A stretch of DNA of 22,501 nt from a virus. Below, piece after piece: positions 1,875 through 17,194 of this stretch. The stretch lies in the IMG/VR virus record IMGVR_UViG_3300022220_000023, positions 1-22,501 of that record. One strand, given 5' to 3'. The notes under the pieces were generated by a model. It saw nothing but the letters and a program-made list of their open reading frames with translations. It was not told where the DNA came from and searched no databases. A program made the position numbers and the translations under genes. The number at the start of each line of letters is the position of its first letter. Position 1 is the stretch's first letter.

Positions 1875-1878
1875 TCGG

Positions 1879-2106: not shown

Positions 2107-2278
2107 TGATCTCCTCCGGCCGTGTATCGGCCACAAGCTCGGCAACCTGTGCACGCAGCTCTACCAGCTTGCGCGCGAGCACGTGGGCCGTCGCCGCATC
2201 GTGTGCTAGCCGGCTCACCAGGTGCTCGGCGCCCAGGTTTAGTTTCAACAGCTCATCCCGTGTCGTCTTCAGCTTCAT
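2093..2278 (-). CDS. Small helical protein, 61 aa
   Basis: A short, almost wholly helical protein (KLKTTRDELLKLNLGAEHL, then ARKLVELRAQVAELVADT) with heptad-like Leu/Val spacing typical of small oligomerising phage proteins. It overlaps the first gene of the leftward cluster by 26 bases and the next by 14. The ribosome site is weak (CTGGGACG before ATG), so expression probably depends on coupling to the upstream gene. No family recognised. Confidence 0.55.
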   Translation of the reverse strand: MKLKTTRDELLKLNLGAEHLVSRLAHDAATAHVLARKLVELRAQVAELVADTRPEEINANG

Positions 2279-2507
2279 CGTCCCAGCCCAGTTCTATCTC
2301 CATGCCTGCCTTGACGCGGTGAAAAACCTTGTCCGGGCTCTGTCCTCGCGCCCTTGCGGCCCTGCGTATCCATGCGAATATGGCTTCTATGTCTCCGCGT
2401 TCAACCCGTCCTAGTAATTCCGGCACCGTACAATCATCGTCTATCGCCTGCTGTTTTAGGTTGTTGACCGTGGCTGATTTTGCTCTGATTTGTTCGGCAG
2501 TACCCAT
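2253..2507 (-). CDS. Hypothetical protein, first gene of the leftward cluster, 84 aa
   Basis: Starts MGTAEQIRAKSATVNNLKQQ and has an acidic end (ELGWDDEAEDDTG). It is predicted helical, with IEAIFAWIRRAARARGQSP in the middle. No Shine-Dalgarno precedes the ATG at 2507. It is the promoter-proximal gene of the leftward cluster, facing the regulatory region 2508-2653; a TTGACA sits about 30 bases upstream. No family recognised. Confidence 0.6.
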   Translation of the reverse strand: MGTAEQIRAKSATVNNLKQQAIDDDCTVPELLGRVERGDIEAIFAWIRRAARARGQSPDKVFHRVKAGMEIELGWDDEAEDDTG

Positions 2508-2513
2508 GCCAAA

Positions 2514-2542
2514 CCATTAGCACACCCGTTACACACTGTCAA
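2514..2542 (-). promoter_or_regulatory. Candidate leftward promoter of the small-gene cluster
   Basis: On the minus strand a perfect TTGACA (2542-2537) is followed after 17 bp by TAATGG (2519-2514), a poor -10; GCTAAT preceded by TG is an alternative -10 at 15 bp. Transcription would begin almost at the ATG at 2507, which has no ribosome site. The -35 lies inside the conserved repeated element, so a protein bound there could affect both directions. Confidence 0.35.
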
Positions 2543-2582
2543 CAAAAACGTGACAGCATAAACCATGTCAACGGTCTAGGAT
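2528..2582 (+). promoter_or_regulatory. Late promoter/operator element, copy A
   Basis: It holds GTTACA (2528-2533), TGTCAACAAAAACGT (2537-2551) and ACAGCA (2553-2558), then 17 unconserved bases and CTAGGAT (2576-2582). CTGTCA and TGACAG (2536-2541, 2551-2556) form a perfect 6-bp inverted repeat with a 9-bp gap, and GTTACA/GTGACA repeat directly 22 bp apart, two helical turns. TAGGAT is a plausible -10 (TAnnnT). There is no standard -35 for the rightward direction, which suggests an activator binds the upstream part. A leader of about 65 nt would follow, containing a small CTAGC/GCTAG hairpin (2595-2613), up to the scaffold gene. A second copy is at 18662-18716. The role is inferred. Confidence 0.6.
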
Positions 2583-2653: not shown

Positions 2654-3379
2654 ATGGCAAAATTGGAAATTGACACCGAGGCCGAGCTTACCACCGAGAC
2701 CATTGAGGCATTGCGCCCATTGCTTGAGGCGGTAAATCATCACGTGCTCGACGAGAGGGCGTTCCTGGGCCTAAAGAAACAGGGCGCCAGGGAGCCCGCT
2801 GACGCACTTGCTGCACTGCAGGCCGAACACGACGCACTCAAGACCACGCACACCGAAGCCGCCGAGAAGCTCAGAGAGCTGGAGCGTGCTGCGATGTCCG
2901 AGGCCGAGCGCGTAGCAGCCGAAGCCAAGGACCGCGAGGCAGCGTTGGCGGAGGCGCAGGCGAAAGCCGCCGCGTCTGAAAAGCAGGCAGCCAAGGCCAT
3001 CACGGCCATGAAGGCAAAAGCCCTCGCGGCGGAGATGCCCAACCTGCTGGCCAACGTGCGGCCCGAGCTGGCCGAAGCAGCGCGCCTGGTTGCACAAGCG
3101 AACCTCAAGGGTCTCGGCATCACCGACGAGGGCGAGCTGACCGTCCAGGGCGACGACGGCTCTGACCTGGTGGGCGATGATGCAAAATCTCACTTCGGCA
3201 CCTGGTGGAGCACTCAGGGTCATTTCCACGCGCCACAGCAACCCGGACCCGGTACAGCTGGCAGTCCAGCTCCGGCGCCCAAAGCAAACGACAGGTTTCA
3301 ACCAATTTCGCCGGCCGTTGGCAGCTATGAAGAGCGCCAGGCCATCGCAGCCGCTGCAGATGCGGCCGAGCGAAAATAG
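2654..3379 (+). CDS. Capsid scaffolding-like protein, 241 aa
   Basis: A long Ala/Glu/Lys-rich coiled coil spans about residues 50-128, typical of scaffold proteins that organise capsid subunits during procapsid assembly. It is followed by a helical/acidic region (130-190), a Pro/Gly linker (195-212), and a short helical C terminus rich in Ala that could be the capsid-binding tail. It lies directly upstream of the capsid gene, the normal scaffold position. GGAAGGAGATGGAGCA precedes the ATG. No serine protease motif is visible, so self-cleaving protease-scaffold activity of the Mu I type is not supported. The exact family is not certain; it resembles DUF4355-like scaffolds. Confidence 0.7.
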   Translation: MAKLEIDTEAELTTETIEALRPLLEAVNHHVLDERAFLGLKKQGAREPADALAALQAEHDALKTTHTEAAEKLRELERAAMSEAERVAAEAKDREAALAEAQAKAAASEKQAAKAITAMKAKALAAEMPNLLANVRPELAEAARLVAQANLKGLGITDEGELTVQGDDGSDLVGDDAKSHFGTWWSTQGHFHAPQQPGPGTAGSPAPAPKANDRFQPISPAVGSYEERQAIAAAADAAERK

Positions 3380-3394: not shown

Positions 3395-4840
3395 GTGGCA
3401 GCTACCCTATTAGCCGAAGTCCTCGACCTCGTCGGGACGAACACCTTCCGCCAGATGGTTTACGAGTCGTTCGTGCACGGAGACCCGCTCGGCGCGCGAA
3501 TGCCGTTTTCCAGCGAAGGCGTCAAGGGCTCCCAGTGGGTCCAGTGGTACCGCGCAAGCAATGCATCGGCCAGCACCCACAGTTTCTACGCTGACTTCGC
3601 GTCCAGCGCGGCGACCTGGGACAAGTACAACGGGTTTCTCACTGCCATCAAGCGCGGTGACACTCTCAATGAGGTCGTGGATGTGGCGCTCGGCGTTGGC
3701 GATGTGGGATTCAACTCGGTGGTCCAAAAGCGGAAGGCCATCATTGACGCCATCGCCAAGTTGTACCGTGAGTACCTGGTGACCGGCACCACGTACACCT
3801 CGGCAATCGGCGCCACTCTCACTGGTATGGGCCTCACTGCCATCGAGGCGAGCCCGCGTCTGTTCGATTTCGCCGATGTCCACCCGCAGGACGGCGTTAC
3901 GCTCGGCACCACGGTCGGCACGTTCAAGTGGGTGCAAGGAACCCTGGCTCTTTCGTACAAGGCTCCCGGGGATGACTACTTTGGCCCCGCGCAGACCATG
4001 AGCGCCTCGAGCCGCTTCCGGATACCGCTGTACTCCGGTCTGGATTCGAGCAACACGCCGAACCCGTCCAAGTGGATTCGCAGCACCTGGACCTACGCAA
4101 CCCTGGCCGCCACCGGAAACTTCACCGGCGACACGGCTGTCGCTGCGGAGTGTGTGACGTTCACGCCGGCCGTCCAGCCAACTGGCATGATCCAGAATCT
4201 GCACCCTCGACTGTCCGTGTATTCCGACCTGTCGGGCGCCGCCACCGCTGCCGGTACGGGCAGTGTTACGAACGGTCCAGCGGCTGGCGGACCTGCCAAT
4301 CGCAAAAACCTGTCCTGGCTCCGTGACGAGCTGTTGGACATGTCCAACGATGACCCGTCGCGGTGCGCAATCCTTGCGCCCCCGAACCTCATCCTCGGCA
4401 CTCTCGAAGGCCTGGTCACGCACCTCGGCCACGGTGTCGATCCGGTCATGTTCATGGGCAGCGCGCTCAACCAGGGCTTCAGCTACGGTGACATGCCCGT
4501 ATTCAAGAACCGGTTCATTCCCACCAACCTGGCCAGCGCCGACGCCAGCAGGGACGACCTGACCTCGATCATCGGCGTGGTGCTCGGGGTGGACAACTAC
4601 CACATCAAGACCACCAGCGTGATGGGTAACTCAACCATCATGGACCAGACCTCGAATCGTGTGTCCGGTGCAATCGCCGAGGGCGACGGCACCTCTACCG
4701 GAACCAGTATCCCGGTGCAGTACTACGAGAAGAGCGCTGGCGACAATCTCAACACCAACATGCGCGGGTTCATGTTCTTGGAGGGCGTGGCGAAAAACCT
4801 GTCGGACGTGGCCGCCATCACACACGTTTACAACCAGTAA
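3395..4840 (+). CDS. Major capsid protein, probably HK97 fold, 481 aa
   Basis: The size, the place after a scaffold, and the alternating alpha/beta pattern fit a major capsid protein. The early region (residues 1-60) has a helix and an aromatic loop (QWVQWYRAS); a long helix follows near residues 100-130 (VVQKRKAIIDAIAKLYREYL). Near residues 325-400 is an LRDELLDMSNDD...CAILAPPNLILGTLEGL segment that looks like the spine/A-domain. The C-terminal part is beta-rich (YHIKTTSVMGNS, RGFMFLEGVAKNL). The start is GTG with GGAG 6 bases upstream. It is much longer than the Mu capsid protein (about 305 aa), so the capsid module differs from the Mu-type tail module. The fold is inferred from context. 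Confidence 0.75.
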   Translation: MAATLLAEVLDLVGTNTFRQMVYESFVHGDPLGARMPFSSEGVKGSQWVQWYRASNASASTHSFYADFASSAATWDKYNGFLTAIKRGDTLNEVVDVALGVGDVGFNSVVQKRKAIIDAIAKLYREYLVTGTTYTSAIGATLTGMGLTAIEASPRLFDFADVHPQDGVTLGTTVGTFKWVQGTLALSYKAPGDDYFGPAQTMSASSRFRIPLYSGLDSSNTPNPSKWIRSTWTYATLAATGNFTGDTAVAAECVTFTPAVQPTGMIQNLHPRLSVYSDLSGAATAAGTGSVTNGPAAGGPANRKNLSWLRDELLDMSNDDPSRCAILAPPNLILGTLEGLVTHLGHGVDPVMFMGSALNQGFSYGDMPVFKNRFIPTNLASADASRDDLTSIIGVVLGVDNYHIKTTSVMGNSTIMDQTSNRVSGAIAEGDGTSTGTSIPVQYYEKSAGDNLNTNMRGFMFLEGVAKNLSDVAAITHVYNQ

Positions 4841-4848
4841 GGAGATAC

Positions 4849-5241
4849 ATGCTTTTCGACGCCAGTCCGCGGACCTTCTACTGGGTCTATTCGTCATTCG
4901 GCCCCAGCTACAACGAGGTAGAGCATGGGCTCTGTTTTGTGGATGGACTACACCCCCACCCAGTGGCTGGACCCATTGCCGAGAAGGCACAGTTGAATGG
5001 ATACCTGCTCGTCGAGCATGAGGGCAACGAGGTATTCCGTGAGTGGTCTCGGGACGACGGGCGTTACTGGACTCCGCAGTTTTCCTCCCCTGGCTCCAAC
5101 GGGGGCGGCAGTACGGGCCATCTCCTCCCAACGCTGCCGCCCCCCGAGGACTGGCCGGACAAGCTCCCTGAATCGTATCTAGGGCTTTTCGACCGGTACA
5201 CGCCACAGGGCAGGGTTAAGCGCAAATACCGTGGCGACTAG
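4849..5241 (+). CDS. Hypothetical structural-region protein, 130 aa
   Basis: It begins MLFDASPRTFYWVYSSFGPS, with AAGGAG 6-7 bases before the ATG. The first half appears to be a compact beta domain (GLCFVDGL, NGYLLVEHEGNEVFREWSRDDGRYW); the second half is a Gly/Ser/Pro-rich linker and a basic tail (GRVKRKYRGD). It lies between the capsid and connector genes, a slot often used by head fibre or decoration proteins, but no family is recognised. It overlaps the next gene by 11 bases. Confidence 0.6.
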   Translation: MLFDASPRTFYWVYSSFGPSYNEVEHGLCFVDGLHPHPVAGPIAEKAQLNGYLLVEHEGNEVFREWSRDDGRYWTPQFSSPGSNGGGSTGHLLPTLPPPEDWPDKLPESYLGLFDRYTPQGRVKRKYRGD

Positions 5242-5623
5242 CATTACCACCCAGGCGGATGTGGTTACCTACGGGTTGATTGACGACAACACAATCGAGC
5301 GCCTGACCACGGACCGCATGCGCAAAAACAACTGGCTAACCCTCCATCAACGCGCATGGAGCAAGGTCAAGGCGCACCTCAAGCTCCCGCCGACAATCGA
5401 GGAGGCTGACCTAGACGATACCACCGAGCTGACCGTGGCGACGGTTTACATGGTTCTGTATCTGGCTTACGAGCAGGCCGCGCCGGTGGGCGGGGGCATG
5501 AGAGAGCAGAGCGGCTTGTACTACAGGAAGGCCATCAAGACCATGGCTGAGGTCAGGCTCACATCTGGCGGAGTGGAGCTGCCGCGGCGGTCCTACCAGT
5601 TCCGCAGGGGGGCGAGGGCATAA
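5231..5623 (+). CDS. Head-tail connector, Mu gp36-like (DUF1320)
   Basis: A small helical protein with a typical connector opening: ITTQADVVTYGLIDDNTIERLT, then a helix of TELTVATVYMVLYLAYEQAA, as in gp36/DUF1320 and HK97 gp6-type adaptors that attach to the portal after packaging. The C terminus is short and basic (RRSYQFRRGARA). The GTG start at 5231 lies within the end of the previous gene. Position before an HK97-gp10-like gene supports the call. Confidence 0.65.
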   Translation: MATSITTQADVVTYGLIDDNTIERLTTDRMRKNNWLTLHQRAWSKVKAHLKLPPTIEEADLDDTTELTVATVYMVLYLAYEQAAPVGGGMREQSGLYYRKAIKTMAEVRLTSGGVELPRRSYQFRRGARA

Positions 5624-6139
5624 ATGCCTGCAATCCAGATGAAGGCAAACCCCACCGCTGTCATAAGGACAATGGACACCCGCCTACAAGCGGCCATTGT
5701 GCGCAATCAATCCCGCGCGCTGGAGCTTATCGCCGATCGCCTCATTGCAGACATCCGCAAGGGCCCATGGTTCACGCGTGACGGCGGCGTGCTCAAGGGC
5801 GGTCTTTACAGAACCCGCCCGAAGGTACGTAAAAGCGGCTCCAGTATTGACGCCGGCTGGGGCGGACCTGCTGCGGTCTATGGCCCCGTGCTGGAAACCG
5901 GACCCGAGAAACGGTCATGGGTAATTGAGCCAGTTGGCATCAAGGCGGGGGGTCAGCCCGTCAAGGCCCTGCGATGGTTCTCGAATGGCCAGGTGCACTA
6001 TGCAAAACGCGTAGTCCGCCACTGGTCTACCAAGTCACTTCGGCCTCACTTTGGCCCAGCGTCAGATAGGCTTGTGCCGTTCAATCGGCGCGTGCTTAAT
6101 GATGCGGCGTCAAACGCCTGGATCGCGGTGGGGCTGTAA
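5624..6139 (+). CDS. HK97 gp10-like head-tail joining / neck protein, 171 aa
   Basis: The centre carries the family pattern: WGGPAAVYGPVLETGPEKR (tyrosine and Gly loop), then ALRWFSNGQVHYAKRVVRHW and SLRPHFGPASDRLV, with the PF04883-like 'Y...lE.Gt.....k..L.W......ff.k.V.hp...pr.fl..A' order. Such proteins form part of the neck or the tail completion complex. The ATG follows the previous stop without any gap. Confidence 0.7.
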   Translation: MPAIQMKANPTAVIRTMDTRLQAAIVRNQSRALELIADRLIADIRKGPWFTRDGGVLKGGLYRTRPKVRKSGSSIDAGWGGPAAVYGPVLETGPEKRSWVIEPVGIKAGGQPVKALRWFSNGQVHYAKRVVRHWSTKSLRPHFGPASDRLVPFNRRVLNDAASNAWIAVGL

Positions 6140-6789
6140 TGCGCACCCCGCCAGACATTCAGGTAGCGAGCATTCTGCATTTCCTCAATCTGGCCCTGCG
6201 CCAGGACAAGGATATACAGAAATGGACCAGCGCGCGCCCCGATGAAATAGTGGCAGAGACCCTGGAGTTTCAGCCTATCCAGCGCAACGGCGGCGAGGTG
6301 TACCTGTTTGCAAACAAAATGCCGACTCTTGCGCTTCATGTTGTGAAGTCCAAGCGCCATCGTCGCGGTGGCCGATGGGGGCGAGATTTGACCCTTTGGC
6401 TGTGGTACCTATTCCTCCCATTTCAAAGCGACGAGCCGAGCATTCACGGCCTTACGAAAGTCGAGCGCTGGAAAAGCCTAATTGACTGGCGCCTGGGCTA
6501 CTGGCTCTATGAGCAAAAACTACCTGCCACAGCAGCCGAGGACGAGGAGGTGTTCAACCTCCAAACCGCCGCCAAGATTCGCACCATGGATGTAGGCGAT
6601 ACCGAATATTTCAACGAGGGTGAGATTGAGGGTCTGAAAATGACCCTTGAGGTTGACCACCTTTGGGCACCATACGAAGAAATGGATCCAGCGACCTTTG
6701 ATCTGCTGGATTTCGAGGCTCACACATTCAGCGCCGGAACCCCACTGGTTGCTGAGCTACAAGTCGAGGGCGACATTGACCAAACGTAA
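6139..6789 (+). CDS. Mu gp37-like tail protein (positional), 216 aa
   Basis: Starts with TAATG overlap. No clear motif, but the length, the Trp-rich middle (LTLWLWYLFLPF, ERWKSLIDWRLGYWLYEQ) and the place between a gp10-like neck protein and a gp38-like protein match the gp37/DUF1834 slot, thought to be a tail completion or terminator protein. The C-terminal third is acidic (DVGDTEYFNEGEIEGLK). The family name is inferred from synteny only. Confidence 0.5.
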   Translation: MRTPPDIQVASILHFLNLALRQDKDIQKWTSARPDEIVAETLEFQPIQRNGGEVYLFANKMPTLALHVVKSKRHRRGGRWGRDLTLWLWYLFLPFQSDEPSIHGLTKVERWKSLIDWRLGYWLYEQKLPATAAEDEEVFNLQTAAKIRTMDVGDTEYFNEGEIEGLKMTLEVDHLWAPYEEMDPATFDLLDFEAHTFSAGTPLVAELQVEGDIDQT

Positions 6790-6820
6790 ATCAATGCACA
6801 GGGTCCGTGACCGCGGAACC

Positions 6821-7066
6821 ATGATGATCACAATGACTCCGGGCTGCCGCAAGTTCGTGCAAAAGCCGCCAATTGGCGCCTGGCGACCCGTGGAGCAGCG
6901 CTATTACAACTATGCCATGGACGACAACGGCGAGCCGTACGGCAAAGACTTCGTTCGCGAGGTACCGCGAGACCAGTACCACAATCGCATGGTCGCCAAG
7001 AACGACTGGATCATGGAGGCGTCGCCGACGCCTAAGCCGAAAGCCAAGGCGGGAGGCAAGCAGTAA
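6821..7066 (+). CDS. Small Mu gp38-like protein (DUF2635-type by position), 81 aa
   Basis: MITMTPGCRKFVQKPPIGAW, then VREVPRDQYHNRMVAKNDW and a Lys/Pro-rich tail. The order 'TPGC...P...VP.D.Y..R' recalls DUF2635/gp38, a small protein that sits just before the sheath gene in Mu-like phages. The start is uncertain: ATGs at 6794, 6821 and 6824 are possible, none with a good ribosome site (GGAA precedes 6821). It ends in TAATG with the sheath gene. Confidence 0.5.
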   Translation: MMITMTPGCRKFVQKPPIGAWRPVEQRYYNYAMDDNGEPYGKDFVREVPRDQYHNRMVAKNDWIMEASPTPKPKAKAGGKQ

Positions 7067-8604
7067 TGACTATTTCCTTTTCCGAAGCTGTCGGCGGGCC
7101 CGTACCTGGCACCGAGATTGAAATCAATCTCCAGGGTCTTGGGGGGCTGCCAAGCGGTGACCAGATTCGCAACATCCTCGTGTTGAGCGAGATTGTCGCA
7201 GCTGGCACCGCGAGTGCCGGTGACGTCACCACGACCCCCTTTGCCGATGCAGACGCGGCCAGCGCATGGTTTGGTGCCGGCTCCCCCGGCGCCCACCAGT
7301 GCGCGTATATTTTCGACTACCGCAATAGCGACAGCGGCAAACCGAAGTGCGCTGTTTATGGCGCCGCGGTAGCGGAGCTGCCGGGTGGTACTGCTGGCGC
7401 CCAGACATTGGTTCTGGCAACCAACGCGAGCGCTGCCGGCGTCTGGGTTTTCTCGGTCGGCGGGTTCCAGTTTTCCGTTACCGTCTCAAGCGGCGACACT
7501 CCCACCGAGCAGGGCGACGCCGTGGTTGCGGCGTGGACCGCGCTCGCTGAAAAGGACTCCGTTCCAATCACCCCGGTCAACGTTGCGGGCACTATCACTT
7601 GGACCGCGAACACCAAGGGCGCCCACTACAATAACATCGGGTTACAAACCATCACGGACCCAGGCATCACCACCACGGCCACATGGCAGAGCACGACCAT
7701 GGGCGGTGCAGGTGGTACTCCTGGCGCAGGTGTTGCACCTACCCTCACGACCATCATTGCCAACCTCGCCAGCTTCTCCGGAGCCGGCCAGATTGTCATC
7801 CCGTGGACGGAAGACGGCAACGCTGCAGCGCAGTCGTTTGAGGTTGTGGCGGTCGAGGCCCTGATCGATCACATCAACGACCGAGCGGATGCTACGAACA
7901 TGGAGCCCACCTCACTGGTCATGGGCTACAAGACCACGGCGGCGAGCTTCGCTAGTATCATGGCTGCTGCCCCGTTCAATGCCAACGACGACCAGCGCGT
8001 CTCATTGGCCGCTCACCCGTACAGTGCGGTATCTGGGGGCGGAGCATGGGACGGCGAGCTGGCGGCCCAGTTTGCGGCAATGAGGGCGTCTGAGACGCAT
8101 TACGCGCGCAGCTTCGACGGGCTACCGTTTCGCAATCTGCAACCCCCGCTGTCCACGGACAACTGGACGTCGGTTGAGCTGAAGGCACTCCTCGAAGCGG
8201 GGTGCTCGCCGATTCACCAGCCCACCGCCAACGCCGAAATGGCCATGGTCAGAAACGTCATGTGCCGCACCTCTTTCGGTGTGGTGGATGGCACTATCAT
8301 GGACTCCCTGGACTACGTACGCGAGGCAGTCAAGGCCAAGCTGGCACTGCTGGTGCGTATGTCCATCGTAGGCGACGACGAGGACCCGCCTCCTGTCGAG
8401 CACATCACGCAACCCAGCGCCATTAAGGCGATGATCAAGGCCACGTTCGACGAGTTGCAGGACGAGGGCTACTTGACCAACGTCGACGACAACTGGCCGT
8501 CAGTGGTCATCGAGCTGGACGGTACCACGGTACAGATCAGCATCCCCACGGATATCGTTCCGCAGCTGCACAACATCATGACGCGCCTCGACTCGGCGGT
8601 ATAG
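7066..8604 (+). CDS. Tail sheath protein, Mu gpL-like, 512 aa
   Basis: The contractile sheath subunit that polymerises around the tail tube. The N-terminal part (SEAVGGPVPGTEIEIN; ILVLSEIVAAGTA; an AYIFDYRNSDSG segment) matches the sheath layout, with a central Ala/Gly/Thr beta-rich insertion (about residues 95-250). A domain with FEVVAVEALIDHINDR near residues 258-273 fits the subtilisin-like sheath core (PF04984). The C-terminal domain (DSLDYVREAVKAKLALLVRM through ISIPTDIVPQLHNIM) fits the conserved handshake region. It is joined to the previous gene by TAATG. Position right before a small tube gene supports the assignment strongly. Confidence 0.85.
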   Translation: MTISFSEAVGGPVPGTEIEINLQGLGGLPSGDQIRNILVLSEIVAAGTASAGDVTTTPFADADAASAWFGAGSPGAHQCAYIFDYRNSDSGKPKCAVYGAAVAELPGGTAGAQTLVLATNASAAGVWVFSVGGFQFSVTVSSGDTPTEQGDAVVAAWTALAEKDSVPITPVNVAGTITWTANTKGAHYNNIGLQTITDPGITTTATWQSTTMGGAGGTPGAGVAPTLTTIIANLASFSGAGQIVIPWTEDGNAAAQSFEVVAVEALIDHINDRADATNMEPTSLVMGYKTTAASFASIMAAAPFNANDDQRVSLAAHPYSAVSGGGAWDGELAAQFAAMRASETHYARSFDGLPFRNLQPPLSTDNWTSVELKALLEAGCSPIHQPTANAEMAMVRNVMCRTSFGVVDGTIMDSLDYVREAVKAKLALLVRMSIVGDDEDPPPVEHITQPSAIKAMIKATFDELQDEGYLTNVDDNWPSVVIELDGTTVQISIPTDIVPQLHNIMTRLDSAV

Positions 8605-8611
8605 GTGAAAT

Positions 8612-8998
8612 ATGGGAAACGCGGCATTCGCGACGTACGAAAAGGACGGGCAGATTCTTCACAACGTGGAGGGTCTGGCCATCAACAAGGCAGGCGGGAG
8701 CGAGTCGGTTCCGATTCGCACGATTACCCCCAGCCGGCAGCCCATTGGATGGAAACACGGCCAGAAACCGGACTACACCATCACGTTCAACGTCCAGCTT
8801 TTGGACAGCGGGCTTGAGGTGGACTGGATGGCACTCAATGACAGTAAGGCCGAGTTCACTTTTACCGAGCGCACCGATTCGTGGTTCCGCACCTTCTCTC
8901 TGTGCGTGGTGCAGTCTTGCGAGTCCACCACGGATGAAAACAACTCGCCGACCTGGGCGGTGACCATCGGTTGCCTCAAGTCCAAATACAACCCGTAG
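8612..8998 (+). CDS. Tail tube protein, Mu gpM-like, 128 aa
   Basis: A short beta-rich protein in the tube slot directly after the sheath gene. It starts MGNAAFATYEKDGQILHNV; beta strands follow (YTITFNVQLLD, AEFTFTERTDSWFRTFSL, WAVTIGCLKSKYNP) as in single-domain tail tube folds that stack as hexamers. AGGTGA lies 6-8 bases before the ATG. The function comes from position, length and secondary structure. Confidence 0.7.
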   Translation: MGNAAFATYEKDGQILHNVEGLAINKAGGSESVPIRTITPSRQPIGWKHGQKPDYTITFNVQLLDSGLEVDWMALNDSKAEFTFTERTDSWFRTFSLCVVQSCESTTDENNSPTWAVTIGCLKSKYNP

Positions 8999-9020
8999 GC
9001 CGAAAGCAAAAGGAGATGCC

Positions 9021-9653
9021 ATGTCTGACGAGCCCACCAACAAGTCCACCCCGGAGCCGGTTCCCTGTCTTGAGGCGCTACTGTCTCTTGAACCAATTCT
9101 GAGCGACCCTATAGAGGTGAAATTCGGAGGGCAGGCAACGCATGTTGTGCTGAGGGAAATACCGAATGATACAAAGAACCGTCTCAAAATGGCGGCGATT
9201 CAGCACGTAGAAAACGCCCGGGTAGAACGCGAGAAACACGGCGGCAATGAGTGGCGCAACGCCGCCGCCGATCTGGATGTCCTGAAGATGGAAGAGCAGG
9301 ACCTGAGAATCCTTCACGCCGCACTAACGGACCCTGTTACGCATGGGCCAGCCGTCAGCCTGGAGACCATGCGTTACCACATGGGCTCTAATCTCCAGGA
9401 GTTCCTCGGACAGAAATACGAAGAGCACGAAGCTGGCATCAACCCTGACGGCGCCACTGACGAGATGATCCAGGCGCTACTCGACGACGTAAAAAAAAAC
9501 GAGGATTTGGTCTCGCTTTGGACGCGGTACGGATCGCTGACGGCCCTGCGCTGCGTGCAATTTTTGGCTGCTCAAGTCGAGATGTACCAGACCGCGCAAT
9601 CTTCTACTATCTCCACTGGAAAAAAGCGGCGTACGCGCAAGCCGAAGAAATGA
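9021..9653 (+). CDS. Tail assembly chaperone, short form (gpG / Mu gp41 equivalent), 210 aa
   Basis: Located between tube and tape measure, where the chaperone that keeps the tape measure soluble is encoded. It is largely helical and acidic, with LREIPNDTKNRLKMAAIQHV and ATDEMIQALLDDVKKNEDL, and ends in a basic tail (GKKRRTRKPKK) that starts exactly at the slippery site. Its UGA stop overlaps an ATG in the -1 frame (ATGA at 9650-9653). AAAGGAGATGCC precedes the start. The -1 frame after the slip is open to 9790, so two products are expected. Confidence 0.75.
   Translation: MSDEPTNKSTPEPVPCLEALLSLEPILSDPIEVKFGGQATHVVLREIPNDTKNRLKMAAIQHVENARVEREKHGGNEWRNAAADLDVLKMEEQDLRILHAALTDPVTHGPAVSLETMRYHMGSNLQEFLGQKYEEHEAGINPDGATDEMIQALLDDVKKNEDLVSLWTRYGSLTALRCVQFLAAQVEMYQTAQSSTISTGKKRRTRKPKK
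9620..9626 (+). other. Programmed -1 ribosomal frameshift site
   Basis: The heptamer A AAA AAG fits the X XXY YYZ rule in the frame of the upstream gene (A, AAA 9621-9623, AAG 9624-9626). It is nine codons before the stop, the usual place in tail chaperone genes. The -1 frame is open onward to 9790. Shift efficiency cannot be read from sequence; a second possible site, A AAA AAC, is at 9494-9500. Confidence 0.7.
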
Positions 9654-9790
9654 AGTTGGACCTGCTTACAAAGTCGAGCACGGACGAACGGCTTGAGGCC
9701 ATCATTGAGGTAATGGCTGAGGCGACAAAGGCAACCCTCGAAATGCTTGCCACTATTGCCAAGATACTGGCAAAGAGGCAGGTCTTTTAG
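9626..9790 (+). CDS. Frameshift extension of tail chaperone (gpT / gp41'-like), 54 codons
   Basis: Read after the -1 slip, this adds AAYAQAEEMKLDLLTK and a long amphipathic helix (IIEVMAEATKATLEMLATIAKI) to the first 202 residues of the short form, giving about 256 residues. An ATG at 9650 overlapping the short-form stop could also yield a separate 46-residue protein by re-initiation. In lambda-like and Mu-like phages the fusion binds the tape measure while the short form binds the tail. The stop TAG overlaps the GTG of the tape measure gene. Confidence 0.65.
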   Translation, partial: AAYAQAEEMKLDLLTKSSTDERLEAIIEVMAEATKATLEMLATIAKILAKRQVF

Positions 9791-12165
9791 TGCCGCCCAA
9801 GCAGACAGTAGCAATTACTATTTCGGCCGACAATCGCCGGCTGAAGGCGGACCTGCGCCGCGCGTCCGGGGAGCTGCGATCGTTCGAGCGACAGGTGGGT
9901 GGGGTTGCGATGCGAATGCGTCGCATGCGCCAGTCGTTTATGCAGTCCGGCATCTTTGGCAGGGCCGGCGGTGCGGTCAGAACGGCGGCGGGGTTTGCTG
10001 GTGCGTTTGGGTTCCAGCAGCTCATCAAGGACGCGCGGGACTACAACGCAGGCCTGACGGATGTAGGCATTACCGGCAACCTAAATCAGCGACAAATGGC
10101 GGCCATGGGCGAGACCATCAACAAGGTCTCGAACGCCACAGCCAAGTCCCGTAATGAGGTGCTCGGGTTTGTCCAGGTCGTTACGACCCTAACAGGCGAC
10201 GCCAAGGGCGCCCACGTAGCGCTGGCCGACATGGGCGAAATTGCGCTTGCCACCGGCGCGGACATGAACGACCTCGCCGGGGTATTCGTCAAGCTCACAA
10301 AGAACATGGGCATCATGCCCAGCAAGGCGCGAGCTGCGTTCAACATCCTGCGTAGCCAGGAAAAACTTGGCTCCATTACCATGGCCAACGTCGCCCAGAA
10401 CTTCGGCAAGCTGGCCGGAGTCGGCGGTGAATTCGGGGCAGAAGGAAAAGGCGTCAAGGGCGTGCGTGCTATCGGTGGGCTATTTCAGCTCGCCGGCCGC
10501 GGGTTTGGTGTGGGCCAGGAGGCACAGGCGGCCATCGCCACGGAGAAGTTCCTCTTTTCTCTGAAAACCAAGCGCAAGCAAATTAAAAAACAGCTGGGCG
10601 TGGATGTATTCGATGCACAGGGCAAGGCGCGCGACCTGCCTACCGTGTTCGAGGAAATCGGGCTCGCCATCGCCAAGAACCCGAAGGCCAAGACCCTGAG
10701 CCTGTTTGGTGAACGCGGTGTCCGGGTTGCCGCTCAGCTCAGAGACGCTGTGGCCACTGGCTCGTTTGACCCGGCCGCAGCAAAGCTGTTTACCGCTGGC
10801 GCAAGGGACGAAATCAGCGCAGACGCTGCCAAGCGCCGGGCGTCGCCGGCATTCCAGTTTGACAAAGCGGTCAACCAGCTGGGCAACACGCTCAAAAATT
10901 TCGCAATGCCTCTGTTTAAGTCGCTGTCGAAGACCCTCAAGGAATTCGGCCCCGACCTGGTTAAGATGCTCAAGTTCGTGCTGGAGAATAGCCGTACCCT
11001 GTTCAACCTCTGGCTGGGGGTCAAGGGCGCGCGGTTTTTCTCGAACCTCATGGCCCCAGTGGGGGGCGGCGGCGGCATCCTGACAAGCGCCGGGCAGGTC
11101 ATGGGCCCCGGCGGAATAGCAATGGCCGGAGGGCAGCTGGCTCCGGCGTCACAGGCCGTTGCGCAGGCTCTGGGTGCCGCCGGTGCATCGGGTGCGCGTT
11201 CGGCTCTCTCGGCCTATCCTATGACGTTTGGAGCCAGGGCCGAGGGCTTCGGGACCAATCGCCTGACCGATGCTCAGATGTTGCGCCGCGAGCGCACACT
11301 GCGCGGGCGAGCTGGTAGATTTGCTGGCCGCGGCGTTGAGTTTCTCTCCACCCACCGCGGGACCATCGGCCGAGGCGCCGGAATGGGCATGGGCCTAGCT
11401 GGCGCGGCCGGAATGTTTGGCACCGGTGGCGGCGCTTACGGACAGACCGCCAACATGATCGCGAGCATGATGCTCATGTCGGGCAACCCTGCCCTGATGG
11501 CAGCCGGTGGCGCGGTCATGGTTGGCAATAGCCTACTCGGCACGAAGAATGCCAAGGGCAAGGCTGGTATGTTCGAGGGCGACCTCGTAGACCCGCGCGG
11601 ATTTGCGCGCATGTTTGCTCGGGCGAGCGGTGCGGCAATGAGCCGCGGCAAAGGCTCTCTGCTTGAGAAGGAGATGGGCACCGGCATGGTGTCCGATTTC
11701 CTCACGAACACCTCACGGGGGATTGAGTTCCAAAGGAGCATTGACAAAACACTTGGCGGCGTCGGTCTGGTATCTGACCAGCTCGGAACAGGGTTTGACG
11801 CCGAGCGACTGCTGAAAAAGCGCGGCGTAGGCGGAATCAAAACACTCAAGGGCACATTAGGCACACAGGCCGCCAGGCTTCGGGCAAAGACCATTGAGGG
11901 CATTCGCTCGGCAAAGGCCATGAGGGGCGACAAATCGCCGATCACAGAAGAGCAGATTCAGGCCGCCGCCGGTCCACAGCTCGCCAAGCTAGAGGGCACC
12001 ATTAACGCCCTGGAGCGCGTGCTAGTGAAACTCCTCAAAGGCGAGGGTATCACCGTCAATGCGCGCGTGCTGCTCCCCAGTGGGTCAACCCCGGCCGCAC
12101 GGTTGCATTCTGGCGCCGGGCTTCATGGAGTGGCCGGGGAATACGGGCCCGACGTGGAATACTAA
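9790..12165 (+). CDS. Tail tape measure protein, 791 aa
   Basis: Starts GTG, overlapping the chaperone stop as TAGTG. The N-terminal coiled coil (NRRLKADLRRASGELRSFER, residues 15-34) is followed by a Gly/Ala-rich hydrophobic region and helix (to about residue 100). Residues 100-350 recall the PhageMin_Tail region (LGSITMANVAQNFGKLAGVG, LPTVFEEIGLAIAKN, SLFGERGVRVAAQLRDAV). A second hydrophobic, Gly/Ala/Met-rich stretch lies at about residues 531-584, of the type thought to enter the host membrane. By the usual rule of about 0.15 nm per residue the tail would be near 120 nm. No peptidase domain is evident. Confidence 0.88.
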   Translation: MPPKQTVAITISADNRRLKADLRRASGELRSFERQVGGVAMRMRRMRQSFMQSGIFGRAGGAVRTAAGFAGAFGFQQLIKDARDYNAGLTDVGITGNLNQRQMAAMGETINKVSNATAKSRNEVLGFVQVVTTLTGDAKGAHVALADMGEIALATGADMNDLAGVFVKLTKNMGIMPSKARAAFNILRSQEKLGSITMANVAQNFGKLAGVGGEFGAEGKGVKGVRAIGGLFQLAGRGFGVGQEAQAAIATEKFLFSLKTKRKQIKKQLGVDVFDAQGKARDLPTVFEEIGLAIAKNPKAKTLSLFGERGVRVAAQLRDAVATGSFDPAAAKLFTAGARDEISADAAKRRASPAFQFDKAVNQLGNTLKNFAMPLFKSLSKTLKEFGPDLVKMLKFVLENSRTLFNLWLGVKGARFFSNLMAPVGGGGGILTSAGQVMGPGGIAMAGGQLAPASQAVAQALGAAGASGARSALSAYPMTFGARAEGFGTNRLTDAQMLRRERTLRGRAGRFAGRGVEFLSTHRGTIGRGAGMGMGLAGAAGMFGTGGGAYGQTANMIASMMLMSGNPALMAAGGAVMVGNSLLGTKNAKGKAGMFEGDLVDPRGFARMFARASGAAMSRGKGSLLEKEMGTGMVSDFLTNTSRGIEFQRSIDKTLGGVGLVSDQLGTGFDAERLLKKRGVGGIKTLKGTLGTQAARLRAKTIEGIRSAKAMRGDKSPITEEQIQAAAGPQLAKLEGTINALERVLVKLLKGEGITVNARVLLPSGSTPAARLHSGAGLHGVAGEYGPDVEY

Positions 12166-13079
12166 TGGCATCTATTCGTGAACAGCTGGCAGCCGAGGCC
12201 GACATTGGAGGCGTGACGTTTTGGGCCACGAGCGCAAGTGGGCCAGGCGCCCCCCGGAGCATTGTGCAGCACGGCGGAATCGGTGTTACTGGGGCCGTCA
12301 CTGTTGACCTCGGCAGGCCGGCCAGGACCGAGACACTAAAGGCCACTGTCGACGAGACTGTTTTTCTCAAGTTGATTGCCGTAAAAGACGCCGCCAAGGT
12401 AGTAGATATCACCCATCCACTTTTCGGGACGTTCCAGGGTCGCGTGCAAGACGTGCCCTATGAGGCCGGGCCCGACGACATGGTGGATATCACCGTCACT
12501 GTCATTGAGCACGGCGAGCCGTCCATATTGCTCGCTCCGGCCGTGGTTACCCTGTCCAGCGCCGCCGCAGATGCAGATGCTGCGTTTGCCAATCTCGGCG
12601 ACGACCTTGACGGCCTCGGTGATTTCCCACTGACCGACGACCTGACAAACAATATCACCAACATCAATTCGAGCTATTCCACGTTTAGCGGTGCACTCGA
12701 CGACGCGCAGCAAGGGGTCGCGTCGTTCGAGGACATCGCGGCAGAATTTACCGCATTCGCCCAGGCTGGCCAGGCGCTGGTTGACTCGGTTGACACGGCA
12801 TGGGACACGGTCACAGAGTTGGCTGATTTCTCTGTCCAGGATTTGGTCTATGAGACAATCGACGCCGCGCGTGATTGCGTCAACTCCATGGAGCGGCAGC
12901 TTGGCAACGTATGGGAGGAATTCCAGGTAAGGGGCAGCGTGTCCATTGCCGAGCTGGCGCGTGAATTCATCGGCGCCGATGACGACGATTCTATCCAGCT
13001 GATACTTGACAGAAACCCACAAATCGTGGACGTCTCAGCAATCCTGCCGGGCGTCAGCGTGTCTATTCCAATCCTATGA
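12165..13079 (+). CDS. Baseplate/DNA circularisation N-like protein (Mu gpN / gp43), 304 aa
   Basis: The N-terminal half (IGGVTFWATSASGPGAPRSI, then HPLFGTFQGRVQDVPYEAG) follows the DNA circulation/Mu gpN domain pattern, a baseplate component despite its old name. The middle (about 120-250) is helical and acidic. The end, residues 256-304 (SVSIAELAREF...NPQIVDVSAILPGVSVSIP), has the two-helix, NP, 'I.PG..V.IP' shape of a LysM-like module. TAATG overlap with the tape measure and ATGA with the next gene place it in the tail operon. Confidence 0.7.
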   Translation: MASIREQLAAEADIGGVTFWATSASGPGAPRSIVQHGGIGVTGAVTVDLGRPARTETLKATVDETVFLKLIAVKDAAKVVDITHPLFGTFQGRVQDVPYEAGPDDMVDITVTVIEHGEPSILLAPAVVTLSSAAADADAAFANLGDDLDGLGDFPLTDDLTNNITNINSSYSTFSGALDDAQQGVASFEDIAAEFTAFAQAGQALVDSVDTAWDTVTELADFSVQDLVYETIDAARDCVNSMERQLGNVWEEFQVRGSVSIAELAREFIGADDDDSIQLILDRNPQIVDVSAILPGVSVSIPIL

Positions 13080-14464
13080 CGGCGCCGTTTGAAATACAGC
13101 TGGTAGACCTTGATACGGGCAAAACCAACCGGCTGACCCACTGGAGCACCTACACCTATATCTCCGACCTTATGCAGGCAGCGGACACCTTCACGGCCAC
13201 AATTGCCCCTACTGCAAACCAGCGCGCATTTACGGCCCACGGCGGGCAGCTGGCAAAGGTGTTTTCTCATGGCGCCCTGCAGTCTACGGCCATCACCGAC
13301 GAGCGCTCTGAGGCAGCAAGCAAGAGCTCCACAGACCTAACTGTCTCCGGCCGCGGCGTGGGTGGGCTGCTGGTGGATTCTGCGGTGCCGCCGTCAGTGG
13401 GGTATTCAATTGCCGAGCTGTCCTTGTTGCAGATTGTCAACAAGATAACGGACCCCTGGCAGCCTGATTACATCACGTCGGTGGTGGCGTCAAATGACGT
13501 AAGCAGGTTCATTGCTGCGGGCGGGCAGTCGAGCTACTCGACCAAAAGCAGGACCGCACTGCGGGTCAAAAAAGATGACAACGGAAACCCTGTTATCGGC
13601 AAAGACGGGAAGGTTAAGCGTGAGCGATACCTGATACCCGGCAAAACCAGCAAGGCCAGGTATAAGCCGTTTGGCAAAAAGTCGCCGTACTACCGGGGCA
13701 CAGGCGAGGAGACGCAGCGAAAGACTCGAATAGAGCCCGGCGAAAAGGTATGGGGTGTCATTTCTAGGCTCTGCAAAATGGTTGCTGCGCATCCGTTCGT
13801 TGGCTGTGACGGAGCGTTGGTGCTCGGGCGCCCTGCCTACGATTTCCAGCCGTCCGCTTATGGTGACGGGCTTGTCTTAGAGTGGAACGACAAACAGCAG
13901 CGCGCCACCGGCGGCAATGTCGAAAACGTCCAGTTTGAGACATCCATCGCCGAACGCCACTCGGAGACCATCGTCTGGGGCACCGGTAAGCCACGCAAGG
14001 GCAGCATGGGCGCCGAGATCAAGCGGCATACCTGGAGCGTTAAGGACCCATGCCCGGCCTTCTGGGTGCGGTCTGCTGCTTCTCCCTGGGTGACCACGAA
14101 CAAGCTCTACAAGCCGGATGTGCGCAAAATAAAGGACGTCGCCAACGAAGACCTTGTACGCCGAATTGCGCGCGGCATATTTGAGGAAAAGGTCATAGGC
14201 GCGTTTTCGCTGCAGTACGAAATAGCAGGCCACCACATCAACGGCGTGCTTCCGGTGGTAGACTCCATGATTCCGGTGCGGGATGAGCGATTCGGGCTTG
14301 AGGATGCGTTCTACATTACTCGGGTGGAACGGAGTGTATCACTAGACAGGGGTGCCACAACTGTTATCAATGTAATCCCTCCAAAGATTTGGCTGCATTT
14401 CGACCACGACAAAACAGGCGACGATGAATATCTAGAGCACATGGTGCAGAGGGTGTTTTGGTAA
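13076..14464 (+). CDS. Baseplate hub protein, Mu gpP / gp44-like, 462 aa
   Basis: Corresponds to T4 gp27-type hub proteins that join the tube to the spike. The N terminus (FEIQLVDLDTGKTNRLTHW, DTFTATIAP) and the later PGEKVWGVISRLCKMVAAHP...GALVLGRPAYD (residues 221-255) are typical of this family. Between them, residues about 157-220, lies a Lys/Arg/Gly-rich stretch (KKDDNGNPVIGKDGKVKRER) that looks like an inserted loop. The C-terminal half is a beta-rich domain ending YLEHMVQRVFW. ATGA overlap with the gpN-like gene. Confidence 0.75.
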   Translation: MTAPFEIQLVDLDTGKTNRLTHWSTYTYISDLMQAADTFTATIAPTANQRAFTAHGGQLAKVFSHGALQSTAITDERSEAASKSSTDLTVSGRGVGGLLVDSAVPPSVGYSIAELSLLQIVNKITDPWQPDYITSVVASNDVSRFIAAGGQSSYSTKSRTALRVKKDDNGNPVIGKDGKVKRERYLIPGKTSKARYKPFGKKSPYYRGTGEETQRKTRIEPGEKVWGVISRLCKMVAAHPFVGCDGALVLGRPAYDFQPSAYGDGLVLEWNDKQQRATGGNVENVQFETSIAERHSETIVWGTGKPRKGSMGAEIKRHTWSVKDPCPAFWVRSAASPWVTTNKLYKPDVRKIKDVANEDLVRRIARGIFEEKVIGAFSLQYEIAGHHINGVLPVVDSMIPVRDERFGLEDAFYITRVERSVSLDRGATTVINVIPPKIWLHFDHDKTGDDEYLEHMVQRVFW

Positions 14465-15271
14465 ATGACACTTGAGCCCCGAAACAACACGTTCAGGATG
14501 GTCTCTGGCGCGGTGCGGTCTATCTCCCGCTGGCTACTGGCGCGGCGCGTGGTCGAGAAGGACAACGCCGACACCGGGAAAATTGCCTTTATGCAGGTCA
14601 AGGGCGACGGAGACCCCGGTGACCCTGATAACCAGGACGTACTCCAGGAGGATGATGTTGACCACGTGCAACATTATGGGTTTGAGTCGTACCCGGCCGC
14701 TGACACCGAGCTGATAGGGCTGGATGCGGATGGCGGGAGCGTGGTTATCGGCGAGCGCGACGCGGTACCGAAGACCCTTGGCGACCTGGCCCAGGGCGAC
14801 GTACGATTATACGACTCTGCAGCCAATGAGATTCTACTGGATGCGGATACCGTGATCCGTATCACCTGCGCAGTGGGCAACGTGGAGCTTTACGCCAAGG
14901 CTGGGTCAATCGTAAAGCTGGGCAACGACTCCAGCGCGACATACCGAAAGGCGGCGTATGCCCATACCACGGAGGCCGGGGCTAGCAAGGTAGCGAGTGG
15001 TACCACCCTGGACGTGTGGACAGGCAATGTCTTGGCGGACATTACTGCAATTAAGGCGGATTTGCTGGCGCTTGTTTCGTTTGTTAATTGCCTGGCAGGA
15101 AACGCGGCTGACGTTGCCACTACAATTGTTGGCAGCGGGCCCGTAAGCGCTGTTTGTGGGTTTCCTGCCGCCCCTACTCTTGCCCCGCTAACCCTTGTTG
15201 ATATTAGCACGGGCACAAATCACTCCTATGTGTCGACCGGTTCGGATGCCGTAGAAGTGGAAGAGCCATAA
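14465..15271 (+). CDS. Baseplate spike protein, Mu gp45-like, 268 aa
   Basis: The segment HYGFESYPAADTELIGLDAD matches the Mu gp45 (PF06890) core, an OB-fold that continues into a beta-helix spike used to puncture the outer membrane. Repetitive Ala/Asp strands follow (LYDSAANEILLDADTVIRI). At 268 residues it is longer than Mu gp45 (about 200), the extra being a C-terminal helical/Ala-rich part that includes LADITAIKADLLALVSFVNC. It begins exactly after the stop of the hub gene. Confidence 0.75.
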   Translation: MTLEPRNNTFRMVSGAVRSISRWLLARRVVEKDNADTGKIAFMQVKGDGDPGDPDNQDVLQEDDVDHVQHYGFESYPAADTELIGLDADGGSVVIGERDAVPKTLGDLAQGDVRLYDSAANEILLDADTVIRITCAVGNVELYAKAGSIVKLGNDSSATYRKAAYAHTTEAGASKVASGTTLDVWTGNVLADITAIKADLLALVSFVNCLAGNAADVATTIVGSGPVSAVCGFPAAPTLAPLTLVDISTGTNHSYVSTGSDAVEVEEP

Positions 15272-15272
15272 C

Positions 15273-15674
15273 ATGCCTCTCGATATTTACTACAATGCCG
15301 CTTCCGATGTCATTGGGCCCGACAATGTGCTCGGGTCGGATGGCAATTACGAGACCACGCCCGGCGCTACGGCGAAGGTTGGCCGGTGCGTGATGTCTGA
15401 ATACCGGGTTATTGACGGAGTGCCGTTCGGCAACAAAGCCTGGAAGGCATTGCAGCGCGCGAGCGACACGTTGCAAAACAGGGCGCTGCTGAAACGGTAC
15501 ACCGAGGAGGCTATTAAGCCCATTCAGGACGCTGGCGAGATTCGTGACCTTGAGGTAACCGTGGACGACCCGGCCAACCTAAAGGGCGCTGCGATGCTTA
15601 TCACGTTTTACGATATTCGGCAAAAGGACACCGTGACCATTGGCGTCCTGTCGCCGTGGGGAATTCCACAATGA
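15273..15674 (+). CDS. Baseplate wedge protein, Mu gp46 / gp25-like, 133 aa
   Basis: Carries the GP46 pattern: a Tyr/Asn N terminus (PLDIYYNAASDVIGPDNVL), RALLKRYTEEAIKPIQDAGEI helix and LEVTVDDPANLKGAAMLITF, which fits the T4 gp25-like lysozyme-related wedge fold (non-catalytic). It lies between spike and gpJ-like genes, as in Mu. Its TGA overlaps the ATG of the next gene. Confidence 0.7.
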   Translation: MPLDIYYNAASDVIGPDNVLGSDGNYETTPGATAKVGRCVMSEYRVIDGVPFGNKAWKALQRASDTLQNRALLKRYTEEAIKPIQDAGEIRDLEVTVDDPANLKGAAMLITFYDIRQKDTVTIGVLSPWGIPQ

Positions 15675-17194
15675 GCCTGAACATCCCACCGAAAGAGACC
15701 GTCCGTGCGACTGTGCGCGCCCTCTGGCAGAGCGAAAGACCTGACGCCGACGATTCGACTTATAGCGACCTCTGGCTGTATTCGCGAATCGTTTCGGTGG
15801 TGGTATTCCGCCTACACCAGACGATTCAGCGCGGCATAAACGCCGTGTTTCCGACTACGAGCTTTGGGTCATACTTAGGTGCGTGGTTGTCCTGGATTGG
15901 AGCGAGTGACGGCTTGGGTGGGTTTGGGTACATCGTGCCCCGTATTTCCAGCGGGACCGATGCAGGACGGGCCACCGCAGACGGCGGAGACATCGCAGCC
16001 AATGCCCTAAACGGCAAACAGATGACGGATGCCGCCGGCAAGCTATACCAGTTCAACGAAAATCATGTCCTTGTCCCGGATGGGACAACGATTGATTTGG
16101 ACATCATCAGCATAACCAAGGGCAGCGCCACAAACCTGGAAAGCGGTACCGTCCTTACCCTGACCAGCCCTCCGGCCAATGCACGCTCTGCGGTAACACT
16201 GGTGGCCGATCTTGATGGGGGTGCCGACGCCGAGACCGAAACCGATGGACGCGCTCGATTGCTCTCCCTGCTGCGCTCTCCGCCTGCATCGGGCAACGTG
16301 GCCAGCTGGGTTAAGACAATCGAGGACACCTCTCCAGGCGCCCTGAAAGCGTACGTGTGGCCCAAGAGAGAAGAGCCGCCCGGGTATGGCAGGGTTGACT
16401 ACTGCGCCCTGCAGACGCTGGAGACGGGCGAGGATAGGTATATCGCCGCGGCTGATGACCTGTACTCTGATATCGAGGATGAGGTGGAGGACAAGCTCCC
16501 TGTTCTTATGTTCAAAAACTCGCGACAGCTGACATTGGTAAGCGACACCGGCGGCGTTGACATTACATATACGCTCGCTGACAATGCCACGGAATCGCAG
16601 AAATGCGATTGGGATAGTGAAAACAACAAGAACCTTATTACTGCCAACGATGATGGGGGGCCGAATATAACCGTTGATGTAAACGTGTGCTCGCCAACTG
16701 TTACAAATGGGCTAGAGGTAGGGCATGTTGTTGTCATTGACGGCATTCCCGGAACAGTCACATCTGTAAACGTAGGCGCAGACCCGAAGGTTTTTGCTGT
16801 TGCGTCTGGCTGGGCGTGGCCGAGCGTTGCAAATGTACTAAATGGGCTCGCGGTCACATCGGGCGGTGGACTGATTGGCAATATTGATTACACCGACTCG
16901 GGCGGAACCGCGGTTGCTCGCTCTGGGGTAATTGGTACGCTGCAAACCTACTTTGACGGCCTGGGGCCAGCGCGCGGAACTTACGCCGCAACAGCAATTC
17001 AGGACTGGGACGACACCGCGCGAATTCAGGGAATCCAGTCTGACATAATCCAGCTAGGCGGCGGATCTATCATCAGTGTTACGGTTGATGATTTACTGGG
17101 CGATGTAATTGACTATGCCCCATCTACAGGGTCTAGCTCAATTGCAGAAATCATAAACATAAGCGAATTCATCGCTCACCAGGTGTTCGTATAA
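15671..17194 (+). CDS. Baseplate J-like protein, Mu gp47-like, 507 aa
   Basis: The core is at residues 186-245: ETETDGRARLLSLLRSPPAS, then a Trp, a GALKAYVWPK strand and GYGRVDYCA, the ordered pattern of baseplate J (PF04865). The start at 15671 is preferred over 15656 because its ATG overlaps the TGA of the gp46 gene. About 120 residues (285-405), starting after EDEVEDKLPVLM, are not expected in Mu gp47 (about 360 aa) and look beta-rich (TLVSDTGGVDITYTLADN; VVVIDGIPGTVTSVNV): a possible inserted Ig-like domain. The C terminus ends GDVIDYAPS...IISVTVDDL. TAATG links it to the next gene. Confidence 0.8.
   Translation: MSLNIPPKETVRATVRALWQSERPDADDSTYSDLWLYSRIVSVVVFRLHQTIQRGINAVFPTTSFGSYLGAWLSWIGASDGLGGFGYIVPRISSGTDAGRATADGGDIAANALNGKQMTDAAGKLYQFNENHVLVPDGTTIDLDIISITKGSATNLESGTVLTLTSPPANARSAVTLVADLDGGADAETETDGRARLLSLLRSPPASGNVASWVKTIEDTSPGALKAYVWPKREEPPGYGRVDYCALQTLETGEDRYIAAADDLYSDIEDEVEDKLPVLMFKNSRQLTLVSDTGGVDITYTLADNATESQKCDWDSENNKNLITANDDGGPNITVDVNVCSPTVTNGLEVGHVVVIDGIPGTVTSVNVGADPKVFAVASGWAWPSVANVLNGLAVTSGGGLIGNIDYTDSGGTAVARSGVIGTLQTYFDGLGPARGTYAATAIQDWDDTARIQGIQSDIIQLGGGSIISVTVDDLLGDVIDYAPSTGSSSIAEIINISEFIAHQVFV

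What the first reader, a model, noticed from the sequence alone, without database searches (positions are those of the whole stretch)
2528..2582. A 55-bp element repeated 16 kb apart, conserved at both ends with a drifting 17-bp centre
Copies at 2528-2582 and 18662-18716 match at 28 of 31 bases on the left and 7 of 7 on the right, but only 6 of 17 in between, always with the same spacing. This is what selection on a protein site plus a -10 would leave. Both carry GTTACA-type direct repeats 22 bp apart and a dyad CTGT...ACAG, and neither has a normal rightward -35. A phage activator of late transcription is a reasonable reading; the TGT-N13-ACA dyad recalls, but does not match, the TGT-N12-ACA site of P2 Ogr. 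Such a pair would turn on two structural operons together.
Basis: partly seen in the sequence, partly recalled or inferred. Interest (0 to 1): 0.78.

Follow-up and report, generated by a model that had tools for sequence, protein, structure and literature searches.

The report
Paired late promoters of unusual phage
Two matching DNA switches 16 kb apart, found so far only in this unusual tailed phage, sit where related phages carry the promoters that an activator protein uses to turn on the late, particle-building genes, so they very probably switch on two late gene blocks together.

Summary
In detail: copies at 2528-2582 and 18662-18716 match 28/31, 6/17 and 7/7, far above chance. The reading as an activator-dependent late promoter pair is well supported by position and architecture, but not proven. 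The window is a 22.5-kb fragment of a deeply diverged myovirus with a Mu-type tail. Its rightward genes are interrupted by leftward genes exactly twice, and one copy sits at each restart. Copy 1 lies just before a scaffold-like gene and the probable capsid gene, where Mu has its late promoter for gene I. Copy 2 lies 15 bp before a start codon, as in leaderless genes. The motif has no match elsewhere, but distant Mu-type kin carry unrelated two-copy elements in the same place, and every kin record checked of 33 kb or more encodes a Mor/C-family activator. In one kin group the site-to-(-10) spacing is 41 nt in all eight copies, the same as here. Each copy lies in a divergent gap with a leftward promoter-like sequence overlapping the site, so the bound protein may also shut leftward genes. 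P2 Ogr is unlikely. An 11-bp repeat register also resembles actinobacterial MtrA/GlnR boxes. The host and the activator are unknown.

The parts
2528..2558 (+). E1 conserved left arm (activator site): GTTACACACTGTCAACAAAAACGTGACAGCA
   Evidence: 28/31 identical to 18662-18692; predicted position about -61 to -31
2536..2556 (.). E1 dyad CTGTCA-N9-TGACAG, centre 2546 (about -43)
   Evidence: read from the sequence
2559..2575 (+). E1 drifting 17-bp spacer
   Evidence: 6/17 identical to copy 2, background level
2576..2582 (+). E1 conserved C + -10 hexamer TAGGAT; predicted start A2589
   Evidence: 7/7 identical; CTAGGAT occurs only twice in the window
2514..2542 (-). E1 leftward promoter-like sequence TTGACA-17-TAATGG with TG before the -10; overlaps the arm
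   Evidence: sequence; TTGACA on - strand at 2537; -10 lacks the final T, so not flagged by the scan
2253..2507 (-). first gene of a leftward cluster of small genes (84 aa, no family match); start codon 12 nt from TAATGG, no Shine-Dalgarno
2654..3379 (+). first gene driven by E1: 241-aa coiled-coil, scaffold-like protein with Shine-Dalgarno AAGGAG
   Evidence: function inferred from position and composition
3395..18402 (+). probable capsid gene, then Mu-type tail operon (sheath 7066-8604, tape measure 9790-12165, gp43-gp47-like 12165-17194)
   Evidence: PHROGs and Pfam matches; capsid by position only
18662..18692 (+). E2 conserved left arm: GTTACAATCTGTCAACAAAAACGTTACAGCA
18693..18709 (+). 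E2 drifting 17-bp spacer
18710..18716 (+). E2 conserved C + -10 TAGGAT; predicted start A18723, 3 nt before the ATG
18640..18668 (-). E2 leftward promoter-like TTGTAA-17-TATCAT with extended TG; overlaps the arm
   Evidence: promoter scan
18399..18632 (-). leftward 77-aa gene with lipoprotein-like N-terminus; TATCAT 13 nt before its ATG
18726..19187 (+). first gene of the second rightward run (153 aa, no match); TAGGAT 15 nt before its ATG

Best explanation
E1 and E2 are a matched pair of activator-dependent late promoters. A dimeric activator, most likely encoded on the missing part of this phage genome and working like Mu C/Mor, binds the 31-bp arm (dyad centred about -43 from the predicted start). 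It recruits or remodels host RNA polymerase at a promoter that has a good -10 (TAGGAT) but no -35. The 17-bp centre is spacer and is free to drift. E1 fires the scaffold-capsid-tail operon; E2 fires the following genes from a start 3 nt before the ATG, giving a practically leaderless message. Because the arm overlaps leftward -35-like hexamers, the same binding probably blocks the leftward small genes (inferred, weaker). Shown: the element, its geometry, its position and the parallel in kin. Inferred: activator, transcription starts, timing.
For: The pair is far above chance and conserved only at its ends. The -10-like hexamer occurs nowhere else on the + strand. A copy lies at each of the two places where the rightward gene run restarts. 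Of 26 gene starts, only the two beside E2 have TANNNT 11-16 nt upstream, the signature of leaderless genes (PMC3160421). In distant Mu-tail kin, unrelated two-copy elements lie before the same head (protease/scaffold) gene in 20 of 32 loci against 9.8 expected, mostly with the second copy before gp46, and 51-58 nt from the start codon in most copies measured. In one kin group (8 copies) site-to-(-10) distance is 41 nt, as in both copies here. 16 of 19 of these records, and all 9 comparison records over 33 kb, carry a Mor/C-family gene. Mu itself has a C-activated promoter before gene I (PMC4461284).
Against: No activator gene lies in the window, no relative carries this motif, and there are only two copies, so base-level constraints are uncertain. 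In kin the second copy precedes gp46, here it precedes post-tail genes. Mor/C genes are general in these phages, so their presence does not single out records with paired elements. Kin elements mostly lack a conserved -10 block.
Confidence: 0.74

Rival explanations
1. The arm is a box for a host OmpR-family response regulator of the MtrA/GlnR kind, so host physiology gates the late genes.
For: Three half-sites in 11-bp register, GTTAC-N6-TCAAC-N6-GTKAC. Actinomycete GlnR boxes are gTnAC-n6-GaAAc or, in mycobacteria, (t/g)TAAC-n6-G(c/a)AAC (PMC10704036); Streptomyces MtrA sites end in GT(G/T)AC (PMC5650626). The only half-site difference between the copies is at the free position of gTnAC. TAGGAT and leaderless-type starts fit a high-GC actinobacterial host. 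Cyanophages use host PhoB (PMC10976474).
Against: Host unknown. The middle half-site is TCAAC, not GAAAC or GTNAC. The A-run between half-sites and the AGCA after them are also conserved, which such boxes do not need. The arm ends about 18 bp before the -10. No other box in the window.
Confidence: 0.12
2. The arm is mainly an operator for a repressor (or early-late switch) of the leftward promoters; rightward firing is secondary.
For: Both copies lie in divergent gaps; TTGACA-17-TAATGG and TTGTAA-17-TATCAT (extended -10) overlap the arm; the 8-mer TAGCACAC is shared, at a constant 10-11 nt from the leftward ATG but shifted 8 nt relative to the arm.
Against: The leftward parts are not in constant register with the arm, whereas the rightward -10 is at exactly the same distance in both copies, so selection holds the arm to the rightward promoter.
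Confidence: 0.09
3. Ordinary constitutive host promoters, copied once and drifting only in the spacer.
For: A good -10; many high-GC promoters lack a clear -35. A single duplication could explain two copies.
Against: 31 bp of upstream arm is conserved while the 17-bp spacer is randomised, which needs selection on the arm; no rightward -35.
Confidence: 0.04
4. A non-transcriptional site (packaging, recombination or transposition-end site).
For: Two direct copies flank a 16-kb module.
Against: Placement shortly before gene starts with a conserved -10; no terminator-like site, no tRNA, no Rfam match.
Confidence: 0.01

Closest known systems
Bacteriophage Mu C-dependent late promoters (P_lys, P_I, P_P, P_mom) and the Mor/C activator family (PF08765)
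   Same: Several late promoters with a common activator site upstream of a poor or absent -35; one lies before the head gene I, the same place as E1; Mu-type tail genes downstream.
   Different: Site sequence differs; second promoter lies after the tail operon, not before gene P (or gp46 as in the kin here); activator not in the fragment; divergent leftward genes at both copies.
P2/P4 late promoters activated by Ogr/Delta (PF04606)
   Same: Dyad of TGT...ACA type, no -35, several promoters fired together.
   Different: N13 instead of N12, centre about -43 instead of about -55 (recalled), no Ogr/Delta family match above cut-off in the window or the 19 kin records.
Actinobacterial GlnR/MtrA boxes (OmpR family)
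   Same: Half-sites GTNAC at 11-bp register, GTKAC end.
   Different: Middle half-site TCAAC; distance to -10; host not known.

Membership tests
Mu-type C/Mor-activated late promoter | Shared upstream activator site at two or more late promoters of one phage | tested here: met
   Two copies, constant geometry
Mu-type C/Mor-activated late promoter | Promoter directly before the head protease/scaffold operon | tested here: met
   E1 -10 ends 71 nt before the scaffold-like gene; kin have pairs there
Mu-type C/Mor-activated late promoter | No consensus -35 | tested here: met
   No rightward sigma-70-type promoter ends at the TAGGAT of either copy
Mu-type C/Mor-activated late promoter | Phage encodes a Mor/C-family activator that binds the site | not testable with these tools
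   None in this 22.5-kb fragment, but near-complete kin all have one; binding not testable
P2 Ogr/Delta late promoter | TGT-N12-ACA site centred near -55 | tested here: not met
   TGT-N13-ACA, centre about -43; the N12/-55 consensus is recalled
P2 Ogr/Delta late promoter | Ogr/Delta zinc-finger gene | tested here: inconclusive
   None in the window fragment nor above cut-off in 19 kin records
GlnR/MtrA box | GTNAC-type half-sites in 11-bp register | tested here: inconclusive
   Two of three half-sites fit, the middle one only partly
GlnR/MtrA box | Actinobacterial host | not testable with these tools
   No close relative, no host information
Leaderless bacterial gene | TANNNT about 12 nt before the start codon, no Shine-Dalgarno | tested here: met
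   Both E2 genes (13 and 15 nt), 2 of 26 genes in all; the 18726 gene has a weak AGGA that is part of the -10

The most novel reading that the evidence does not exclude
The arm is bound by a host OmpR-family regulator of the MtrA/GlnR kind, so a contractile-tailed phage times its late, virion-building genes by its host's cell-cycle or nitrogen signal, while the same binding shuts divergent leaderless leftward genes.
Probability: 0.1. Interest if true: 0.75.

Novelty: new member of a known kind. Interest (0 to 1): 0.5.

Why it matters
It gives the first candidate late-promoter motif for a deeply diverged Mu-tail phage lineage for which no close relative was found. The comparison suggests a general rule in Mu-type phages: the late promoters keep their place and geometry while the site sequence is replaced, presumably together with the Mor/C activator. 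That makes activator-site co-evolution directly testable across many sequenced phages.

Tried and rejected
Close relatives by sheath, baseplate hub and gp47 proteins: none in viral contigs; sheath, capsid, tape measure, scaffold and the 18726 gene gave no match in phages, and the hub, gp47 and head-morphogenesis proteins only remote ones. The motif in viral, genome and phage collections: none, weak chance-level hits, or six chance hits with unrelated flanks. One search (a loose pattern with many N) returned 0 where about 28 chance hits were expected by my estimate, so I do not rely on N-rich collection scans. Terminator, tRNA and Rfam readings: nothing. E. coli LexA (CTGT-N8-ACAG): spacing differs. 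PhoB-like placement: arm ends too far from the -10. MerR-type long spacer: the spacer is not conserved. Fold of the 84-aa leftward protein: four helices, pLDDT 68, too weak to use. A first ORF mask hid E1/E2 in my own control, and the second control also missed them, so the frequency of pairs in kin is a lower bound.

Full report
WHAT WAS CHECKED. Flanks fall to background. The pair is the best ungapped self-match of the window, score 30 against a maximum of 24 in 337 dinucleotide shuffles. The difference between ends and centre is significant (Fisher P=2.5e-5) and the centre does not differ from 25% identity. So this is not a young duplication but an element whose ends are held and whose middle is free. 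No third copy exists in the window.

THE RECORD. The window is a complete IMG/VR record of 22,501 bases, a fragment. It encodes a MuF-like head protein (weak match), scaffold-like and probable capsid proteins, tail sheath, tape measure and Mu-type gp43 to gp47 baseplate genes. Best tail relatives are at 22-28% protein identity; head and post-tail genes have no convincing relatives among the phages and kin loci searched. The host is unknown.

ANATOMY. The rightward genes are interrupted by leftward genes twice, at about 1133-2507 and 18399-18632, and one element sits at each restart. In E1 the -10 TAGGAT is 71 nt before the scaffold-like gene, which has a strong Shine-Dalgarno. In E2 it starts 15 nt before the ATG of the next gene. 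Of 26 gene starts only the two on either side of E2 have TANNNT 11-16 nt upstream, the mark of leaderless genes, which are frequent in Actinobacteria and Deinococcus-Thermus and present in several other groups (PMC3160421). With the start at the seventh base after the hexamer (A2589, A18723) the 21-bp dyad CTGTCA-N9-TGACAG is centred at about -43, the arm covers -61 to -31 and the drifting centre is the spacer. That is the geometry of an activator that takes the place of a -35.

LEFTWARD SIDE. Both arms contain TGTCAA, a leftward TTGACA. In E1 it stands 17 bp from TAATGG (12 nt before the leftward ATG), in E2 a shifted TTGTAA stands 17 bp from TATCAT with an extended TG, 13 nt before the leftward ATG. 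TGTGCTA keeps its distance to the leftward start codons (10 and 11 nt) but not to the arm (8-nt shift). A protein on the arm would therefore cover the leftward -35 region in both copies; a late-on, leftward-off switch is likely but inferred.

COMPARISON WITH KIN. The motif itself has no match elsewhere. I therefore asked whether Mu-tail kin have an equivalent. In 32 kin loci whose best intergenic repeat scores 20 or more, 20 have a member in the gap region before the protease/scaffold gene against 9.8 expected (binomial P=2e-4 by locus, 0.017 with my hand-made family grouping). At least five unrelated sequences do this: ACTGAACCCCNTC, CTTAAACCCCGCTGATACTC, GTGTGGAACTCYCTC, CCGTCCCAGGGAC, AGGGTTTGAA. 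The second copy is mostly before the 116-aa gp46 gene, and the element start lies 51-58 nt from the start codon in most copies measured. In the GTGTGGAACTC group the distance to TA[TA][TC]CT is 41 nt in all eight copies; in the window CTGTCAAC to TAGGAT is 41 nt in both; this equality may be coincidence. 16 of 19 records with such pairs encode one Mor/C-family protein; the three without are short fragments, and 9 of 9 comparison records above 33 kb also encode one, so Mor/C is general in this group and this fragment probably just lacks that half of the genome. Ogr/Delta is absent above cut-off. Mu has C-activated late promoters before lys, I, P and mom, with I serving head assembly (PMC4461284).

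MECHANISM. Best reading: a pair of activator-dependent late promoters that works like Mu's C-dependent promoters, probably served by a phage activator encoded outside the fragment. Membership in the Mor/C system is not shown because the activator is missing. The strongest alternative for the binder is a host OmpR-family regulator: GTTAC-N6-TCAAC-N6-GTKAC resembles GlnR and MtrA sites (PMC10704036, PMC5650626), and phages are known to use such a host regulator, PhoB in cyanophages (PMC10976474). The middle half-site and the conserved A-run fit poorly, and the host is unknown.

LIMITS. Only two copies; no expression data; kin are distant and not independent; ORF-based controls undercount pairs; N-rich pattern scans of the collections may not be reliable.

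Noticed in passing
L107, L110, L116, L161, L152, L155, L119, L080, L097, L059, L012, L060, L072, L132, L122 (coordinates): Mu-tail phages of several lineages carry unrelated two-copy elements, mostly 51-58 nt before the start codons of the head protease/scaffold gene and of gp46; candidate Mor/C late promoters with replaced site sequences.
   Followed up: partly
L080 254-320, L119 5881-5940, L097 16414-16480: Several of these kin elements are followed by a G+C-rich inverted repeat ending directly at the start codon, for example GCCGCCACTAAGGTGGCGGC-ATG.
   Followed up: no
1133-2507 (-): Cluster of small leftward genes inside the structural region, including a Cys-rich (CPCPVCGK...CVGCAH) restriction-alleviation-like protein at 1133-1411 (resemblance by eye only).
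   Followed up: partly
18399-18632 (-): 77-aa lipoprotein-like leftward gene (MRHAILILVMLACGC...) between the tail operon and E2; could be a spanin-type or surface protein.
   Followed up: no
Viral contigs pattern scan: A loose 16-base pattern with long runs of N gave 0 hits where my rough estimate is about 28 by chance; N-rich collection scans may under-report.
   Followed up: partly
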